Source: a virus. From it: DNA of 20,335 bases. The position numbers and the translations under genes were made by a program. The stretch's first letter is position 1; every line of letters begins with the position of its first letter. This document shows, in pieces, positions 4,275-20,335 of the stretch. The notes beneath the pieces were generated by a model. That model was not told the origin of the DNA. It made no database searches and saw nothing but the letters and a program-made list of their open reading frames with translations. The stretch lies in the IMG/VR virus record IMGVR_UViG_3300022890_000456, positions 1 through 20,335 of that record. One strand, 5' to 3'.

Positions 4275-5336
4275 CTACTGACTGGGGCTGTCTTCGTCTG
4301 TGGTCATATTTGTGAGCACCCATATCTTCCTGACATGGATGTGTGAACTCAAATCAGTTATCCGCAAAGCGAACTCGTGGCTCTGTGGTGTGGTCTCGAG
4401 ATCAATCGTAATACGGTTATAGTTTTCTTCGAAATTGTCTATAACTGCTGTGTGCTCGTTACCGAAGTCTCCGGTATCCAACTTCACATCAAATACTATC
4501 TCGCCTCGTGCAGCAGTCGTATTGTCGAATTCGAATGCTACCTGGCGTACAGGGAACGGACGCTGGTTAGAATCAGTCAGAGTCCGAGTTGTATAGCGGA
4601 AAGCTGTATTGTCTTCAAGGTACTTAAACAGCTTCTTCTTCTGGAGTGCGTATACGAAGTTCACGACATCCGTGCTGGGGTTAGAACCTATGACCCTGCG
4701 CTTATCCCTACCTATACGTAATACCTTGTTTGCGAACGTACTGAGTGCTGTACGGACGTTCACTGAAACCTCTGTGACCGCTCCACCAGCCCATGAGTAC
4801 AATCCGTTGGTATTGGATGTGTAGGCTACTTGGTCCAAAGGCGTAGCCCGATTCGCCGCTGTAGCGAACATCTGTTCTTCTACCTTGATATGGCGGTAGT
4901 CGCCATCAAATGATAAAGCATTAGGAATCCAGTATCCACCACCGGCGCTGGCTACATACATATCAGTAGTCCCAGCAGGGAAGAATGCTAATAGGCTATC
5001 GGCTGTCTCATCGAAAGCTATACCGTCAAGGTCTTGAGGAAAGATGACATCATCATATTCAGGAGACCCGTACAGTAGGGTTGTGCCATCAATGCGCCAG
5101 TTCCTACGAAAGAACCAAGTCCAGTCATCGCCTGATATCGTGTTCTGTTTGGCCGTGTAAGCATCGCCTGTACCGAGCTGTGCCGTATTGGCTACCAGTC
5201 GGCCAGGGTACTCTATATCGAAGCCGTACCCATCAGGAGTAAAGCCATCTTGTAGTTGCTGCACAGCCGTTTCAGTGTCCAACCCAGCAGGGAAGACAGA
5301 GGCGATTGGCAACCAGCGCATATCGGATCCAGCCAT
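4275..5336 (-). CDS. Beta-rich virion protein (353 aa), possible head-completion/tail protein
   Basis: Starts at ATG 5336 with a perfect AGGAGG 5 bp upstream, which decides the start. The 353 residues are rich in Thr, Asp, Phe and Tyr, with repeated beta segments and Gly turns. The N-terminal part (MRWLPIASVFPAGLDTETA) and the many W/F/Y-Gly turns recall beta-propeller or beta-sandwich proteins that close the portal channel in podoviruses. This is a loose resemblance in character, not an identified homology. It lies between the connector-like gene and the 480-residue protein, with 12 and 7 bp gaps, so it is in the same transcript. Confidence 0.82.
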   Translation of the reverse strand: MAGSDMRWLPIASVFPAGLDTETAVQQLQDGFTPDGYGFDIEYPGRLVANTAQLGTGDAYTAKQNTISGDDWTWFFRRNWRIDGTTLLYGSPEYDDVIFPQDLDGIAFDETADSLLAFFPAGTTDMYVASAGGGYWIPNALSFDGDYRHIKVEEQMFATAANRATPLDQVAYTSNTNGLYSWAGGAVTEVSVNVRTALSTFANKVLRIGRDKRRVIGSNPSTDVVNFVYALQKKKLFKYLEDNTAFRYTTRTLTDSNQRPFPVRQVAFEFDNTTAARGEIVFDVKLDTGDFGNEHTAVIDNFEENYNRITIDLETTPQSHEFALRITDLSSHIHVRKIWVLTNMTTDEDSPSQ

Positions 5337-5348
5337 AACCGCCTCCTG

Positions 5349-5735
5349 TTAGTCTTCGTCGAATGATGCTATGACTTCGGAATCTGTAGCTGCCGCCGCC
5401 GCTTTCTGGTCTCTATCCAGCAAGGCGCGTCTGAGCGCACTGGCGAATTCAGCCTTTACCGTGTCCAAGTCCTGATCGCCTGTCTTGTGCCCGTACTGAG
5501 TCAAGTATCTGTCGATACCTGCTTCAAGCACAAAGCCATGATCGGCGTCTATCGCAACAGTATCGTCAGTCGCTGTTACATGTGCAATAGCTGCAGAGAG
5601 GTTCGTATCAATCGAATAGATGTTTAACGCATTATTCGTTGCCCGGATGAAGTCATGCTTAAAACGATCAGAGCTGGCCTGCATGTTGTATTCATACAGT
5701 TTGGTTGCCCAAATCTTACCAAGGTTGAGTGCCAT
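5349..5735 (-). CDS. Head-tail connector/adaptor-like protein (128 aa)
   Basis: Start ATG 5735 follows AGGGGG by 5 bp. The 128-residue protein is mostly helical. It opens with a helix-rich segment (KIWATKLYEYNMQASSDRFKHDF), has a middle segment around IDADHGFVLEAGIDRYLTQ, and ends with a long helix (KAEFASALRRALLDRDQKAAAA). Length, helix content and the late part resembling a membership-by-column adaptor (a residue pattern of D.V..A...AL) fit gp6-type head-tail adaptors that bind the portal. Its position a few genes after the capsid gene agrees. The assignment rests on size, context and general fold impression only. Confidence 0.75.
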   Translation of the reverse strand: MALNLGKIWATKLYEYNMQASSDRFKHDFIRATNNALNIYSIDTNLSAAIAHVTATDDTVAIDADHGFVLEAGIDRYLTQYGHKTGDQDLDTVKAEFASALRRALLDRDQKAAAAATDSEVIASFDED

Positions 5736-5744
5736 CGCAGCCCC

Positions 5745-6185
5745 CTAGTCGTCCCAAAGTTGCAGGAACGCTTTGACAGTCTTATTCGAATCAGTAGCAC
5801 TGTGACCACGAAGCTCAACACGAGTCCGGACAAGCAACATAGGCTCAAAGCCGTTTGTGGCCGAACCAAGCTGTACACCCGAAGTATCGTGAACAGGTAC
5901 GCGAGGATAGATAGGAGCCGATGAAACAAATGCACCGTTCGAATAGATCGTCTGTTCCGTATCACAGTTGACGTTCGTGAGACATACGAGAGATACATTA
6001 CCAGTGACAACTGCTTCGTCAGCACTGAATGTGAGCCCTACGATGTAACCGTCAATAGGCTCAGTGGTGTAGGTAGTGTTCGTTGTGTCTTCTGATACTT
6101 CAATGACTAACGGAATACCGTCAGCTCCAGCGTAGACCAGACCAGCAACTAGACACACTACGAATGTGAGAAGTAGATTACGCAT
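5745..6185 (-). CDS. Secreted-type protein with N-terminal signal peptide (146 aa)
   Basis: Start ATG 6185 has AAGGAG 6 bp upstream. The protein opens with a classic Sec signal: MRN, then a hydrophobic core (LLLTFVVCLVAGLV), then YAG, with likely cleavage after VYA near residue 19. Cys11 lies inside the hydrophobic core and does not sit in a proper lipobox. The mature part is about 125 residues, beta-rich and Thr/Val-rich, with a single pair of cysteines (LVCLTNVNC) that could form a disulfide. It ends in LQLWDD. No family is recognised. A signal peptide in the middle of head and connector genes is odd; the product may be exported to the periplasm or cell surface rather than built into the virion. 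Confidence 0.8.
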   Translation of the reverse strand: MRNLLLTFVVCLVAGLVYAGADGIPLVIEVSEDTTNTTYTTEPIDGYIVGLTFSADEAVVTGNVSLVCLTNVNCDTEQTIYSNGAFVSSAPIYPRVPVHDTSGVQLGSATNGFEPMLLVRTRVELRGHSATDSNKTVKAFLQLWDD

Positions 6186-9172: not shown

Positions 9173-9952
9173 TTAACTTGCCTTCCTTCCGGATCTTTTG
9201 AAATCTTCAATTTCTGCTGGCGTTGCATTAGGCACCATCTGCCTGAACTTCGCCATATCTTCATTGCTCCACCCACTGCCACCTTCTGTACCGTGACCTC
9301 CTGTACCGCTACCGCCCGTACCAGCTGGTGCTGGCATTGCCGGCGCTGTACTAGGTAAGACCTTAACTGCTGTCAAAGCCTGTGCCCTAGTGAAACCTTC
9401 CGCTTGAAGTTTATCAATACGATCCTTATTTTCCTTGTATATCTCGCTGTTGGTATCCCGGTAGTCAGTGAAGCCGCCTTTCAGTTCGGCTATCTCCGCA
9501 TCCCGTTTCTCCAACTCAGCCCTGTACTTCGAGTCTATGTTCGCTTCGACATCGTTTGCCATACCGGCCATAAGGTCGATAACAGCTTCGTTGCCTCTTT
9601 CGTCCAAGTCTCTCAGTACATTATCACGGGCCTGCTGCTTCTCTGCTTCTGTCTGTTCGGGAGTTGCTGTCTTCGCTGCCGTTGCTTCTACGAGCTTCTG
9701 AAGCAGAGGATTCTCTGCCTGCTCGATCCGTTTCAGCATCGCTGCATTTTCCTGTTCAGCTTTAGTCGCACGACTCTGCATTTCCGTGTATGACTTTTCT
9801 GCCATGCTCGAGTCATCAAATTCGCGTCCTGCGAACTTGAATTTGTCACCCGTATCGCCACCGGCGGGGGGTGTACCTTTGCCTTCGGTATCAAGGGCAG
9901 GCGGCGTGTTGCCGTCTGGTATCTCTACTCCGGTGATGGGGTCTATTGCCAT
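9173..9952 (-). CDS. Scaffold-like assembly protein (259 aa)
   Basis: Guides assembly of capsid protein into the procapsid, if the assignment holds. The start is taken at ATG 9952 because a perfect AGGAGG lies 6 bp before it; the frame is open further upstream, but that part lies in an intergenic repeat. The N-terminus is flexible and Gly/Pro-rich. Long charged coiled coils follow at about residues 55-100 and 110-200 (rich in Glu, Lys, Ala and Gln, with runs such as AEKQQARDNVLRDLDERG). Then come a Pro/Gly linker (TGGSGTGGHGTEGG) and a basic C-terminal helix (ATPAEIEDFKRSGRKAS) of the kind that binds capsid protein. Composition and position before the capsid gene are the evidence. Confidence 0.8.
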   Translation of the reverse strand: MAIDPITGVEIPDGNTPPALDTEGKGTPPAGGDTGDKFKFAGREFDDSSMAEKSYTEMQSRATKAEQENAAMLKRIEQAENPLLQKLVEATAAKTATPEQTEAEKQQARDNVLRDLDERGNEAVIDLMAGMANDVEANIDSKYRAELEKRDAEIAELKGGFTDYRDTNSEIYKENKDRIDKLQAEGFTRAQALTAVKVLPSTAPAMPAPAGTGGSGTGGHGTEGGSGWSNEDMAKFRQMVPNATPAEIEDFKRSGRKAS

Positions 9953-9978
9953 TGCTGGCCTCCTGCTTATGATCTTTA

Positions 9979-10023
9979 CGGGCCTGACACCATGCCAGGG
10001 TATCGCTCTAATCAACGTAAATT
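9979..10023. repeat. 45-bp intergenic direct repeat, copy A
   Basis: Matches 10245-10289 at 42 of 45 positions in the same orientation, 266 bp apart. It lies in the gap between the 54-residue gene and the scaffold-like gene. On the coding strand it begins AATTTACGT and ends GGTGTCAGGCCCG. A weak 4-bp stem (CCTG/CAGG) is inside. Confidence 0.85.
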
Positions 10024-10220: not shown

Positions 10221-10243
10221 CATCTAACTCTATGCTGGCTATT
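10221..10243. repeat. 23-bp companion repeat, copy B
   Basis: Second copy of the 10027-10049 element, one base left of the 45-bp copy B and just upstream of the ribosome binding site of the 54-residue gene. Confidence 0.6.
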
Positions 10244-10244
10244 G

Positions 10245-10289
10245 CGGGCCTGACACCATGACAGGGTATCGCTCTAACCTACGTAAATT
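10245..10289. repeat. 45-bp intergenic direct repeat, copy B
   Basis: Second copy of the 9979-10023 element. It starts within the stop codon of the upstream 68-residue gene and fills the gap before the 54-residue gene. Three mismatches to copy A. Confidence 0.85.
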
Positions 10290-10494
10290 AGCTGACTGGC
10301 ATCTTTGATCGCTTGATCTTGAACAACCGGTTATCGCCACAATCTATGGGCTTTCGGTTCTTCAATACTGCCTTGTAGCCTTTAAGCTCAAGCTCTGCCT
10401 GCGTATCTGGTGTTCCCCAGAAGGCATGTTCAGTCTTGCTCTTAATCAGGCCAATGTCTTTTGCATCTTGTTCTAAAAGTTCTAGCCCGGTCAT
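10288..10494 (-). CDS. Small protein (68 aa), unknown
   Basis: The start is placed at ATG 10494 (MTGLELLEQD) because GGAG lies 6 bp before it. In-frame ATGs further upstream fall in a tandem-repeat promoter-like gap and give the odd peptide MRHLRHMRHM. The protein is hydrophilic, starts with a helix, has a middle WGTPDTQAELELKGYKAVLK segment and a basic end (FKIKRSKMPVS). It follows the gap with the TGTCTCAT arms and may be the first gene of a transcript leading into the head genes. No family is recognised. Confidence 0.7.
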   Translation of the reverse strand: MTGLELLEQDAKDIGLIKSKTEHAFWGTPDTQAELELKGYKAVLKNRKPIDCGDNRLFKIKRSKMPVS

Positions 10495-17482: not shown

Positions 17483-17700
17483 CCTTGCGCCCATGCCTTC
17501 TGCCTAGTGGTCTTGCCGTTTTTCCTTGCATTGCGCTTGATCTTCTTTAGCTCGGCCTGTGATTGCGCCAACGTAATCTCACCCGAACGCACTCTCTCTA
17601 TCAATGCCATCCGCACGTCAATGCTATCAGCAACACCCCCAGCATCTTCCGCGTTGTTCACTGCTACCCGTTTTCTATTTCGGTCCCAGAAGTCCATCAC
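17479..17700 (-). CDS. Small phage-type helical protein (73 aa)
   Basis: Start either GTG 17700 (GTGA overlap with the previous stop) or ATG at 17697; GGTGAG lies 5 bp before the ATG. The C-terminal part, MALIERVRSGEITLAQSQAE (31-50) and then LKKIKRNARKNGKTTRQKAW, is a two-helix basic unit with a pattern I have seen in other phage accessory proteins of unknown role. The N-terminus (DFWDRNRKRVAVNN) is basic. Probably cytoplasmic, perhaps nucleic-acid binding. Confidence 0.75.
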   Translation of the reverse strand: MMDFWDRNRKRVAVNNAEDAGGVADSIDVRMALIERVRSGEITLAQSQAELKKIKRNARKNGKTTRQKAWAQG

Positions 17701-18299
17701 AGCTCACCATCTTTCTCTAGTTGTATAGCGCGGTCCATCAAGGCCCGCCATGTCTTGTCGTCAAATGACTTACCGTAAGGTATGTAACACCTCCATAACT
17801 CGGCGAATGTGTCCAAATCGGCATACGCTCCCATTATCCCCAGCCTTGCTACCATCGCTATCCGCTCCCCATCCGTATTCGCAGGGATTGCTTGCGGGTG
17901 GGCTTCTCTCCAATCATCGCACACATGGATATTCATGTTCTTGACCTGTGTGGTATGGAGCAGGCAATAGTGGTTATCCTCTTGACTGTCGCAAGTGTCA
18001 CAGCTCTTGACTACTTCTGCCTTCCCCTCTCCCTCTGGCGGGTGGGCTTCGGGTTCTACTTCGGTATTAGGCAGTGTGTCCCTTGACGGAGACACATGGC
18101 CCCTCTCGCAGTGGTCATTCCCATTCAGCCTTCGCTCACGACTCTTTACAGGATCACCACATATAGGGCATCGGCCATAGCTGGACGCCACCCCCTCTCC
18201 CTCAGGCTGGGCGGTGGGGTCCTGTGCTTTCATGCAAGCCAAGCAGAGGCCACCCCAAAGTGCCATAAACTTTCCCTTGCATTTAATACATATTACCAT
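17697..18299 (-). CDS. Multi-zinc-ribbon protein with Glu/Gly linkers (200 aa)
   Basis: The start is taken at ATG 18299, just after the ribosome binding site AAAGGCGGCAG and overlapping the previous stop by 7 bp; longer frames upstream lie in the preceding gene. Three Cys modules follow: C4-I-K-C7 with C19-L-A-C22; C44-P-I-C47 with C64 and H68; C100-D-T-C103 with C112, H115 and C127. Between them are two similar linkers, QPEGEGVASS and PPEGEGKAEV, coded by near-identical purine-rich DNA. The last 60 residues are helical without Cys and end DRAIQLEKDGEL. It looks like a fusion of separate small zinc proteins. Function unknown. Confidence 0.75.
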   Translation of the reverse strand: MVICIKCKGKFMALWGGLCLACMKAQDPTAQPEGEGVASSYGRCPICGDPVKSRERRLNGNDHCERGHVSPSRDTLPNTEVEPEAHPPEGEGKAEVVKSCDTCDSQEDNHYCLLHTTQVKNMNIHVCDDWREAHPQAIPANTDGERIAMVARLGIMGAYADLDTFAELWRCYIPYGKSFDDKTWRALMDRAIQLEKDGEL

Positions 18300-18514
18300 C
18301 CTCTGCCGCCTTTCTCTTCTGCTGTCGGGGTGGGGGTTTGTGCCGCTATCCACTCACTAGCACACTGCATGGAGCAGAGGTCAAACTCTGACTCACACCC
18401 AACACTCGCTATAATCTTGACCCATCCCACCATCCCATAGCCGCCATACCGCGATGGCTTGGTTTGGAATTTTTCTCCACAGTTATCACAGACTCTATAT
18501 GCCACTTCACTCAT
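18293..18514 (-). CDS. Small treble-clef-like zinc protein (73 aa)
   Basis: Start ATG 18514 forms ATGA with the previous stop, behind an AGGGGAGGG ribosome binding site. Cysteines C9-D-N-C12 and C47-S-M-Q-C51 give a treble-clef pattern; C40 is extra. The end, TPTPTAEEKGGRGW, is coded by the repeated junction cassette (18297-18336). No further family is recognised. Confidence 0.73.
   Translation of the reverse strand: MSEVAYRVCDNCGEKFQTKPSRYGGYGMVGWVKIIASVGCESEFDLCSMQCASEWIAAQTPTPTAEEKGGRGW
18297..18336. repeat. Junction cassette class II, copy 1
   Basis: Identical to 19063-19102 at 39 of 40 positions. On the minus strand it codes the tail PTAEEKGGRG of one gene, contains the ribosome binding site AAAGGCGG and ends with the ATG of the next gene. 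Confidence 0.85.
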
Positions 18515-19065
18515 ACCCTGCCCTCCCCTGCGGTGGCGGTGGGCAAAGGCATCCAGTGAGTGACCTTGCTTCTTTGCGTGCTTCCAAACTCCAATGCCCA
18601 CATCTGCGTGGTCATGTTTGACGGGATGGAATATCGCGACACGTTTATGCCCCCGCGCCCCCATTTCTCGCTGTAATACTTCACCACTTTCAGATTAGCA
18701 TCTTCTGGCAACCCATCCTCAACGCTGATCCACTCCCCCGCCGCCTGCTGTGGGGCGCGGGTGGCAAGCTCTTGCTCAAGTTCAGCTATTCTCTGAGCGG
18801 GTGTTTTGCCGTATCCACGCCTGACAGTAACCTCAAATGTTTCACCCTCGCTCCTCATGTCTAACGTGATGAAATTTGGAGCGGAATAATGCGTCAACAC
18901 CTTGCCAAGCTCGTAAGCCATCTTAGCAAATATAGGATGTTCAGTAATGATCTCGCACCCGTTCTTATCCATGTGGACGCTGTGAATAGTCGCATCCTCC
19001 TTCAACTCACCCGCCCCCTTGCAGAGATTGTCGCCGCTTACACTCGTTGTCTTGCTATCACTCAT
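18511..19065 (-). CDS. DUF551-domain protein (184 aa)
   Basis: The start at ATG 19065 is in an ATGA overlap with the previous stop, with AAAGGCGG as ribosome binding site. Residues 112-175 show the DUF551 hallmarks: an opening WISVEDGLPED and a closing VTHWMPLP. The first 85 residues are a different alpha/beta segment, and residues 88-100 form a short coiled coil (AQRIAELEQEL). The joining segment ATRAPQQAAG is coded by a 32-bp repeat shared with the gene at the right edge. The DUF551 role is unknown; it is widespread in Gram-negative prophages and phages. Confidence 0.8.
   Translation of the reverse strand: MSDSKTTSVSGDNLCKGAGELKEDATIHSVHMDKNGCEIITEHPIFAKMAYELGKVLTHYSAPNFITLDMRSEGETFEVTVRRGYGKTPAQRIAELEQELATRAPQQAAGEWISVEDGLPEDANLKVVKYYSEKWGRGGINVSRYSIPSNMTTQMWALEFGSTQRSKVTHWMPLPTATAGEGRV
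18522..18533. repeat. Junction cassette class I, copy 1
   Basis: The plus-strand 12-mer CCTCCCCTGCGG (minus strand CCGCAGGGGAGG) is the ribosome binding site for the 73-residue zinc protein. Same 12-mer at 19825-19836 and 20016-20027, each just before an ATGA junction. Confidence 0.8.
18737..18768. repeat. 32-bp coding repeat (class III), copy 1
   Basis: Matches 20153-20184 at 31 of 32 positions. On the minus strand it codes LATRAPQQAAG, the linker before the DUF551 domain. Confidence 0.85.
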
Positions 19066-19817
19066 CCTCTGCCGCCTTTCTCTGCTGCTGTCGGGGTGGG
19101 GGCTGTCATTGCTTCGCACATTGCCCCGCATTCGGGCAAAATGATTTTGCAGTCTCGCCCCGCTTCTGCGTCTAGCTCATCAAGAAACACGCCATTGATA
19201 CACGAATGGCCTATGTCGCGCTCCATCAGTGATCGTGATTTGAACACATCAGGGAAATCAATGCGTATCTTATTCCAATACCCCATGCCGCCCTTGACAC
19301 ATCCCACGCAGTTATTATTGGGGTAGCCCTTGTCATACATTACGGGCCTCGCTATGCCAGCCTGCTCAAGAATGCCGTGAGCATCGGCCTTTGAAAGCCC
19401 TGCCTCTATCAGCGGAAACTCATGCCTTTCTTCTGGCATTGAAGCCTCAAGGCGTTCTGCCCTTTTGCGTTCCCCGTCATCAAATCCCCAGACATAGCGG
19501 AAGGTGTTGAAGAATCGCGTTTGCCCCTCCCACTCTTGGCGCACCCTGCGCTTGAGCAGCCTAGAGCAAGCTGCGCCATGCGGACTACTCACAAAGGCCA
19601 TGCCCCGGCACGCATTTTCAACAGACTTATATGGTGACTCCGTAACCTGAATCACCTTGCCAAACCATTCCTCACATTCCCTGACAAAGCGCATTGTATC
19701 GGGGTGTTGATCTTCAATGTGCTGATATATGATCGTGTCTATCTGGCTAATCATTAGCTTTGTCGCTACCGCTGACGAAACGCCCGCGCTGAACCACGCT
19801 ACAGTTTGCTCTTTCAT
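19062..19817 (-). CDS. PP-loop / PAPS-reductase-like ATPase (251 aa)
   Basis: Start ATG 19817 is in an ATGA overlap behind an AGGGGAGGG ribosome binding site. The N-terminus WFSAGVSSAVATKL (8-21) is the PP-loop nucleotide-binding motif (S-x-G-x-x-S) of the PAPS reductase/ATP-sulfurylase-like family, in the form common to phage members. A later PNNNCVGCVKGGMGYWNKIR has a C-x2-C that may bind metal. The classical ECGLH reductase motif is absent, so true PAPS reduction is unlikely. Phage members are thought of as nucleotide-activating enzymes or as IbrA-like regulators acting with a ParB-like partner; such a gene lies about 2 kb downstream. The last residues PTPTAAEKGGRG come from a junction cassette. 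Confidence 0.8.
   Translation of the reverse strand: MKEQTVAWFSAGVSSAVATKLMISQIDTIIYQHIEDQHPDTMRFVRECEEWFGKVIQVTESPYKSVENACRGMAFVSSPHGAACSRLLKRRVRQEWEGQTRFFNTFRYVWGFDDGERKRAERLEASMPEERHEFPLIEAGLSKADAHGILEQAGIARPVMYDKGYPNNNCVGCVKGGMGYWNKIRIDFPDVFKSRSLMERDIGHSCINGVFLDELDAEAGRDCKIILPECGAMCEAMTAPTPTAAEKGGRG
19063..19102. repeat. Junction cassette class II, copy 2
   Basis: Second copy of the 18297-18336 element (39 of 40 identical), joining the PP-loop gene and the DUF551 gene. Confidence 0.85.
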
Positions 19818-20008
19818 CCCCTGCCCTCCCCTGCGGCCTTCTGCGGCAACTCTATACAGTGTCCAACAGCATCAGCCCCCGGCGTTGGAAACGTGGCACC
19901 AGTACACCATTTCCAGCCCCGAATGACTCTTGTCCAAAAGCCACCATTTATGGCATGGGCCTTTGTGCCAAGCGGATAGCAACACCACGGCTTGTCTCTC
20001 TCTTTCAT
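19814..20008 (-). CDS. Small Trp/Gly-rich phage protein (64 aa)
   Basis: Start ATG 20008 and stop 19814 both lie in ATGA overlaps. The core CCYPLGTKAHAINGGFWTRV then RGWKWCTGATFPTPGAD is a small Trp-rich beta-type unit whose look I associate with accessory proteins of Gram-negative phages. It ends QKAAGEGRG, the class I cassette tail. Function unknown. Confidence 0.76.
   Translation of the reverse strand: MKERDKPWCCYPLGTKAHAINGGFWTRVIRGWKWCTGATFPTPGADAVGHCIELPQKAAGEGRG
19825..19836. repeat. Junction cassette class I, copy 2
   Basis: CCTCCCCTGCGG on the plus strand, just upstream of the PP-loop gene start; serves as its ribosome binding site. Confidence 0.8.
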
Positions 20009-20335
20009 GACTTATCCTCCCCTGCGGTGCTTACTTCGTTTCCGCAGTCATTGCAGACATACGCCATGCCCTCTGTGCCGTCTGATCGATGGCTAATAGT
20101 CCTATCGAACCAGTTGCCGCTACTGGCAGCGCATTTGCAGATTTGATCGTCACCCGCCGCCTGCTGTGGGGCGCGGGTTGCAAGAGCTACGTTAATAATC
20201 TCCTGCATCTCGCTTTCGAGCGGCGCGATGCCGTGCTCTTGATACAGCAGATCAAATAGAGGCTGGTATCGCGCAACCTGTTTCGCTACCGCTGTCTCCG
20301 TGCGGAGATTGCCGCCCGATTCGATTTTAGTTTCG
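20005..20335 (-). CDS. C-terminal part of a zinc-ribbon-ended protein (enters from right edge)
   Basis: The frame is open from the window edge at 20335 to TGA at 20005, at least 109 residues, so the ATG at 20208 is internal rather than the true start. The first half is helical (QVARYQPLFDLLYQEHGIAP, then LESEMQEIINVALATRAPQQ). A zinc-ribbon-like end has C-K-C and C-N-D-C. The linker ATRAPQQAAG is the same as in the DUF551 gene, and the end STAGEDKS is the class I cassette. Function unknown. Confidence 0.75.
   Translation of the reverse strand, partial: ETKIESGGNLRTETAVAKQVARYQPLFDLLYQEHGIAPLESEMQEIINVALATRAPQQAAGDDQICKCAASSGNWFDRTISHRSDGTEGMAYVCNDCGNEVSTAGEDKS
20016..20027. repeat. Junction cassette class I, copy 3
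   Basis: CCTCCCCTGCGG on the plus strand, 8 bp before the ATG of the Trp/Gly-rich 64-residue gene. Confidence 0.8.
20153..20184. repeat. 32-bp coding repeat (class III), copy 2
   Basis: Second copy of 18737-18768 (31 of 32 identical), in the same reading frame, coding the same linker in an otherwise unrelated protein. Confidence 0.85.

What the first reader, a model, noticed from the sequence alone, without database searches (positions are those of the whole stretch)
18297..20027. Reusable gene-junction cassettes that join unrelated small genes
Two kinds of short repeat sit exactly on gene borders. Class II (40 bp, 39 identical) at 18297 and 19063 and class I (12-mer CCTCCCCTGCGG plus neighbours) at 18522, 19825 and 20016 each supply the last residues of one protein (KGGRG or AGEGRG), the ribosome binding site and the overlapping start of the next gene. 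The genes they join are unrelated. This looks like a modular 'connector' that lets small genes be swapped by homologous recombination without losing translational coupling.
Basis: partly seen in the sequence, partly recalled or inferred. Interest (0 to 1): 0.72.

Follow-up and report, generated by a model that had tools for sequence, protein, structure and literature searches.

The report
Repeated gene-junction linkers in a phage
A tailed phage joins a row of small overlapping genes with a few short repeated DNA linkers that carry the end of one gene and the start signal of the next, and a near-identical phage differs from it by one clean gene-piece gain or loss beside two such linkers, a local version of repeat-bordered gene turnover already described in other phages.

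Summary
The repeats are real. Two class II copies (40 bp, 39 identical) and three class I copies sit exactly on five consecutive overlapping gene junctions. Each supplies the last codons of one gene, the ribosome-binding region and the ATG of the next; the gene bodies are unrelated. The class II tail is absent from homologues of the PAPS-reductase gene, so it is an add-on.

The window's phage is 99.97% identical to a 53-kb IMG/VR contig except for one 369-bp in-frame indel. Its ends lie in D5 and next to a class-I-like copy. It removes or adds a DUF551 module and leaves an open, correctly joined gene.

The cassettes were found in no other virus searched, so exchange between phages is not shown. 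Repeat-bordered gene gain and loss, and repeated start-site elements, are already described in mycobacteriophages and T4-like phages. I read this as a dense local variant: duplicated junction linkers that act as small homologies for gene and domain turnover. The recombination role rests on one indel; translational function is inferred.

The parts
20005..20335 (-). gene running off the window end: N-terminal module + D5 linker + zinc-ribbon-like module (...ATRAPQQAAG|DDQICKC...AGEDKS*)
   Evidence: open frame; the 53-kb relative has a 235-aa version with a DUF551 module between the two
20150..20184 (-). D5 repeat, inter-domain linker copy; the 369-bp indel junction (9 bp TCACCCGCC, window 20150-20158) lies at its edge
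20005..20027 (-). class I junction copy: AGEDKS*, Shine-Dalgarno GGGGAGG, 4-bp overlap with the next ATG
19814..20008 (-). 64-aa ORF, no family match
19809..19836 (-). class I junction copy: AGEGRG* + ATGAAAGAG
19062..19817 (-). PAPS-reductase-like protein (251 aa) whose homologues lack the cassette-coded tail TAPTPTAAEKGGRG
   Evidence: phrog_424 1e-35; tail comparison
19063..19102 (-). class II junction cassette: PTPTAAEKGGRG* + ATG
18511..19065 (-). 184-aa protein: N-terminal part, coiled-coil-like stretch, D5 linker, DUF551
   Evidence: PF04448 3e-9
18734..18768 (-). D5 repeat (ATRAPQQAAGEW), linker in front of DUF551
18506..18533 (-). class I junction copy: AGEGRV* + ATGAGTGAAG
18293..18514 (-). 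73-aa small CxxC protein ending in the class II tail
18297..18336 (-). class II junction cassette: PTPTAEEKGGRGW* + ATG (7-bp overlap)
17697..18299 (-). 200-aa protein with several CxxC modules separated by repeated PEGEG linkers (D7, 18019 and 18187)

Best explanation
The repeats are duplicated junction linkers in a block of small, accessory, tightly overlapping phage genes. Each copy carries a disposable protein tail, a ribosome-binding region and the next start codon in fixed register. Any crossover between two copies of one class would therefore leave a legal stop/start overlap (gene level), and crossovers between linkers inside genes can leave an open fused frame (domain level). I infer that gene bodies were gained or lost between copies by short-homology recombination, probably during phage replication with help of the phage's own exonuclease-VIII-type protein, and that the linkers spread locally as a by-product and were kept because the junctions still worked. 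Shown: position, register, add-on tail, and one near-identical phage pair differing by an in-frame module at linkers. Inferred: recombinase, direction (gain or loss), translational coupling, selection.
For: All five consecutive junctions carry a cassette. Class II is 39/40 identical with unrelated gene bodies on both sides. Copies are spaced 766, 1303 and 191 bp apart, none a multiple of 3, yet each sits in the same register to its own stop and start. The class II tail is missing from about 45 PAPS-reductase homologues whose ends were read. The two DUF551 copies share DNA at their ends (D5 on one side, class I on the other) but much less in the middle. Window and 53-kb contig: 5 mismatches over 16,112 bp, then a 369-bp in-frame indel with 9 bp of shared sequence. 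Two further differences in the 186 bp after the junction suggest a different donor allele (Fisher p = 0.0017). The phage encodes an exonuclease-VIII-like protein (phrog_412, 1e-50; PF12684). In another phage a 71-bp repeat with RBS and start flanks the homologous PAPS-reductase gene on both sides.
Against: The cassettes are private to this phage in the collections searched. There is one indel only, seen in one contig pair, 186 bp from a contig end. The 9-bp match overlaps the class-I-like 12-mer by only 2 bp. The chance that both ends touch repeats is about 0.02 (0.006 with frame), and it was computed after the fact with an interval that included the breakpoint. No crossover between two class I or two class II copies has been seen. 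No annealing protein was identified beside the exonuclease.
Confidence: 0.6

Rival explanations
1. Start-associated regulatory elements: the repeats are kept because they do a job in translation initiation or bind a factor, like SAS/ESAS of Cluster K mycobacteriophages; recombination is incidental.
For: Position at starts and Shine-Dalgarno content of class I. SAS are short, highly conserved, start-linked and shared by unrelated genes (PMC3203893); similar motifs in Microbacterium EF phages (PMC7302621).
Against: Class II is nearly all coding, has a weak Shine-Dalgarno and no stable fold. There are only 2-4 copies, all in one 2.4-kb block. D5 is inside genes and not at starts.
Confidence: 0.15
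2. Plain local duplication: an ancestral gene-plus-junction unit was duplicated and the bodies diverged or were replaced; the linkers are leftovers with no role.
For: Copies only within this block. The two DUF551 copies look like one unit with shared ends.
Against: Bodies next to class II show no similarity while the linker is 97.5% identical, so simple divergence does not fit. The indel ends at linkers.
Confidence: 0.18
3. Convergence: ATGA overlaps plus a Shine-Dalgarno force similar codons, so the sharing is mostly constraint.
For: AGEG/AGEA ends with GCAGGGGAGG also occur at starts in unrelated phages; about the chance number of AGEGRG*ATGA motifs in IMG/VR by a rough estimate.
Against: Cannot explain 40 bp of class II or 35 bp of D5; explains only part of class I.
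Confidence: 0.07

Closest known systems
Repeat-bordered gene gain/loss in Cluster O mycobacteriophages (Corndog gene 14, YungJamal gene 60; PMC4351075)
   Same: Short direct repeats (17-24 bp) at gene ends and starts flank a gene present in one phage and absent in relatives, which have one repeat copy; in YungJamal the repeat changes are synonymous for the upstream gene's end except its last residue
   Different: There, isolated cases; here five consecutive junctions with two interleaved classes, plus a linker class inside genes
Start-Associated Sequences (SAS/ESAS), Cluster K mycobacteriophages (PMC3203893) and Microbacterium EF phages (PMC7302621)
   Same: Short conserved repeats at ribosome-binding sites of unrelated genes
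   Different: SAS are 10-19 copies of 13 bp spread over the genome and conserved among relatives; these are 2-4 copies, longer, coding, local and private
PeSL mobile regulatory cassettes of T4-like phages (Arbiol 2010, Comeau 2014; seen only as cited in PMC4503421)
   Same: Repeated regulatory junctions proposed to mediate gene shuffling
   Different: PeSLs carry promoter and stem-loop terminator; here a protein tail, RBS and start, no stable hairpin
Ea22/DUF551 portable domains of lambdoid phages (PMC10834534)
   Same: DUF551 as a portable C-terminal domain behind a coiled-coil region, mosaic genes
   Different: Here the DNA linkers at the domain borders are themselves repeats
Lambdoid nin-region 'linkers' (Clark et al. 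2001; from memory, not read here)
   Same: Conserved short sequences at junctions of small overlapping genes, proposed as recombination sites
   Different: Not compared; a lead only

Membership tests
Start-Associated Sequences (SAS) | short motif immediately upstream of start codons, containing the Shine-Dalgarno | tested here: met
   class I copies, GGAGG 7 nt before ATG; class II only weakly
Start-Associated Sequences (SAS) | many copies (about 10-19) spread over the genome | tested here: not met
   3 exact + 1 one-mismatch class I and 2 class II copies in 53 kb
Start-Associated Sequences (SAS) | motif conserved among related phages with different genes | tested here: not met
   no other IMG/VR contig carries class II or D5; but no moderately related phage was found, so this is a weak test
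Repeat-bordered gene indel (Cluster O type) | direct repeats flank a segment present in one genome and absent in a close relative | tested here: met
   369-bp in-frame indel, 9 bp shared at its ends; the segment is a domain module, not a whole gene, and the exact repeat is shorter than the 17-24 bp of Cluster O
Repeat-bordered gene indel (Cluster O type) | single repeat copy remains in the shorter genome at the junction | tested here: met
   TCACCCGCC once at the window junction, twice in the relative
PeSL mobile regulatory cassette | early promoter plus stem-loop | tested here: not met
   no fold better than shuffles in class I/II; promoter not scanned; coding on both sides
DUF551 domain | Pfam PF04448 score above cut-off | tested here: met
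   38 bits vs cut-off 22 for the 184-aa protein; the second copy, in the 53-kb relative, 20.4, just below

The most novel reading that the evidence does not exclude
The block is a working gene-and-domain exchange system: a small set of standard linkers, valid both as gene junction (tail + RBS + start) and as inter-domain peptide, lets the phage population shuffle small genes and protein modules by short-homology annealing with nearly every product translatable.
Probability: 0.15. Interest if true: 0.7.

Novelty: new variant of a known kind. Interest (0 to 1): 0.42.

Why it matters
Whether phage mosaicism arises at short homologies at gene borders or by random joining followed by selection is an old debate. 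A block where every junction carries a reusable linker, with a near-identical pair that differs at such linkers, gives a concrete place to count breakpoints in population reads. It also shows how a junction could double as a peptide linker, tying gene shuffling to domain shuffling.

Tried and rejected
Exact and codon-degenerate searches for class II and D5 in viruses: only the same phage. AGEGRG*ATGA pattern: 40 contigs, one hit each; I estimate about 47 by chance if IMG/VR holds about 1e11 bases on both strands (mean contig length assumed). Class I hits in L006-L009 are ordinary RBSs, partly because the pattern itself included the ATG. D5 peptide in GTDB genomes: 26 scattered hits, none in a DUF551 context. 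Hairpin or terminator idea: folds no better than shuffles. Small proteins of the block in 83 other phage fragments: no tblastn hit (no positive control was included). DUF551 proteins against INPHARED phages: no match. Chimeric assembly as the cause of the indel: unlikely with only 9 bp shared and a window-specific base at 20180, but reads were not available.

Full report
What is there. The window is a 20,335-bp IMG/VR virus fragment of a tailed phage: a terminase large subunit and a major head protein match PHROGs families, and the genes read on the - strand. The same phage is in a 53,263-bp IMG/VR contig, IMGVR_UViG_3300025736_000033 (G001; pieces L023, L024, L025), 99.97% identical over 16.1 kb. 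Two shorter contigs cover only parts of the window to the left of the repeats.

The repeats. Class II is 40 bp with 39 identities at 18297 and 19063; class I shares the 12-mer CCTCCCCTGCGG at 18522, 19825 and 20016. Read on the coding strand, each copy ends one gene and starts the next with a 4-bp (once 7-bp) overlap. In the block L024:13648-16663 all five consecutive junctions are of this kind, in the order I, I, II, I, II, while most other gene pairs in the 53-kb contig have gaps (a simple gene call of my own). Spacings of 766, 1303 and 191 bp are not multiples of three, so the shared register is set by the repeats themselves. Class I is partly a strong Shine-Dalgarno: only CGCAGGGGAGG is invariant as a run over all aligned copies, so part of it could be constraint. 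Class II cannot be explained that way.

A third repeat, D5 (35 bp, RAPQQAAG), lies inside genes as a linker: at 18734 in front of DUF551, at 20150, and with a further copy in G001 (L024:16326). A class-I-like copy with one mismatch (L024:16108) is also inside a gene in G001, coding AGEAG. The 200-aa gene downstream has repeated PEGEG linkers between CxxC modules (D7). Gene junctions and inter-domain linkers are therefore related kinds of sequence here (inference).

Add-on tails. PAPS-reductase-like homologues from other phages mostly end shortly after the CG-x-x-CE motif; the window protein continues with TAPTPTAAEKGGRG, the class II tail. Two homologues at 66-68% identity have different short ends. 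The two DUF551 copies are alike in DNA at their borders (D5 before, class I after) and diverged between.

A near-identical pair. Window and G001 agree to window 20161 with five mismatches over 16,112 bp, then G001 has 369 extra bases (L024:16101 against 16470). The junction is TCACCCGCC, present at both ends in G001 and once in the window. One end is in D5; the other is next to the class-I-like copy and overlaps its 12-mer by two bases. 369 is 123 codons, and the window frame is open across it...ATRAPQQAAG|DDQICKC.... The missing part is a linker plus a DUF551 module. Setting aside the mismatch in the junction itself, two of the six differences lie in the 186 bp after the junction (Fisher p = 0.0017), which hints at a different donor allele rather than a simple deletion, although contig ends are error-prone. 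The chance that both ends of a random indel touch repeats is about 0.02, or 0.006 with frame; this is post hoc, and one of the intervals was drawn to include the breakpoint.

Elsewhere. Class II and D5 are in no other IMG/VR contig, even with degenerate codons, and only one other allele of the block was found. As a base rate, 4 of 79 other phage fragments have a repeat that spans an RBS and start at two places. PAPS-reductase genes are flanked by direct repeats in 3 of 64 loci (L035, 71 bp; L041; L030) against 4 of 546 control genes (Fisher p = 0.03). In L035 each 71-bp copy holds the upstream stop region, an RBS and an ATGA start.

How it likely works. Because every copy carries stop, RBS and start in one register, recombination between copies would keep the operon readable. 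The phage has an exonuclease-VIII-like gene, and phage recombinases of the Rad52-like kind are reported to drive mosaicism on diverged homologies (PMC3945230). No annealing partner was identified here, and none of this was tested.

Comparison. Repeat-flanked genes present in one phage and absent in relatives are described in Cluster O mycobacteriophages, including a repeat at a gene end whose changes are nearly all synonymous (PMC4351075). Repeated start-site motifs are described as SAS in Cluster K and Microbacterium EF phages. PeSLs of T4-like phages are mobile regulatory cassettes (known here only through PMC4503421). [quoted passage not shown] The present case differs in density (every junction of a block), in the coding nature of the linkers and in spanning genes and domains. 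I call it a new variant of a known kind, with moderate interest.

Noticed in passing
L035:4931-5001 and 5720-5790: 71-bp direct repeat (about 96% identical) with stop region, RBS and ATGA start flanks a PAPS-reductase-like gene on both sides in an unrelated phage; only two copies in its 49-kb contig.
   Followed up: partly
L072 (its contig G009, 42,917 bp): SAS-like motif CGAAGGGAGCAC: nine places, all on one strand, with up to one mismatch, none for the reversed control; two repeat pairs span RBS and start.
   Followed up: partly
window 9976-10023 and 10242-10289: 48-bp repeat (44 identical) just upstream of two genes; fold not better than shuffles. Role unknown.
   Followed up: partly
L025:896-920 and 9816-9840: 25-bp identical repeat in opposite orientation at the starts of two unrelated genes, both coding MSKST after GCAAGACC.
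   Followed up: partly
L025:3928-3951 and 4479-4502: 24-bp repeat at two possible gene ends coding DEVAE[FL]*; an RBS-like GTTTTAGGAGG also recurs beside them.
   Followed up: no
L041:558-602 and 1352-1396: The start of the gene downstream of a PAPS-reductase-like gene is also present upstream of it, as if the gene had landed in that start.
   Followed up: no
window 10333-10449: Four of the few differences between the window and the 53-kb contig cluster here, beside the 48-bp repeat.
   Followed up: no
L025:15236-15263 and L023:5804-5831: The last 28 bases of the 53-kb contig are identical to an internal stretch in its first part; may be an assembly end effect.
   Followed up: no
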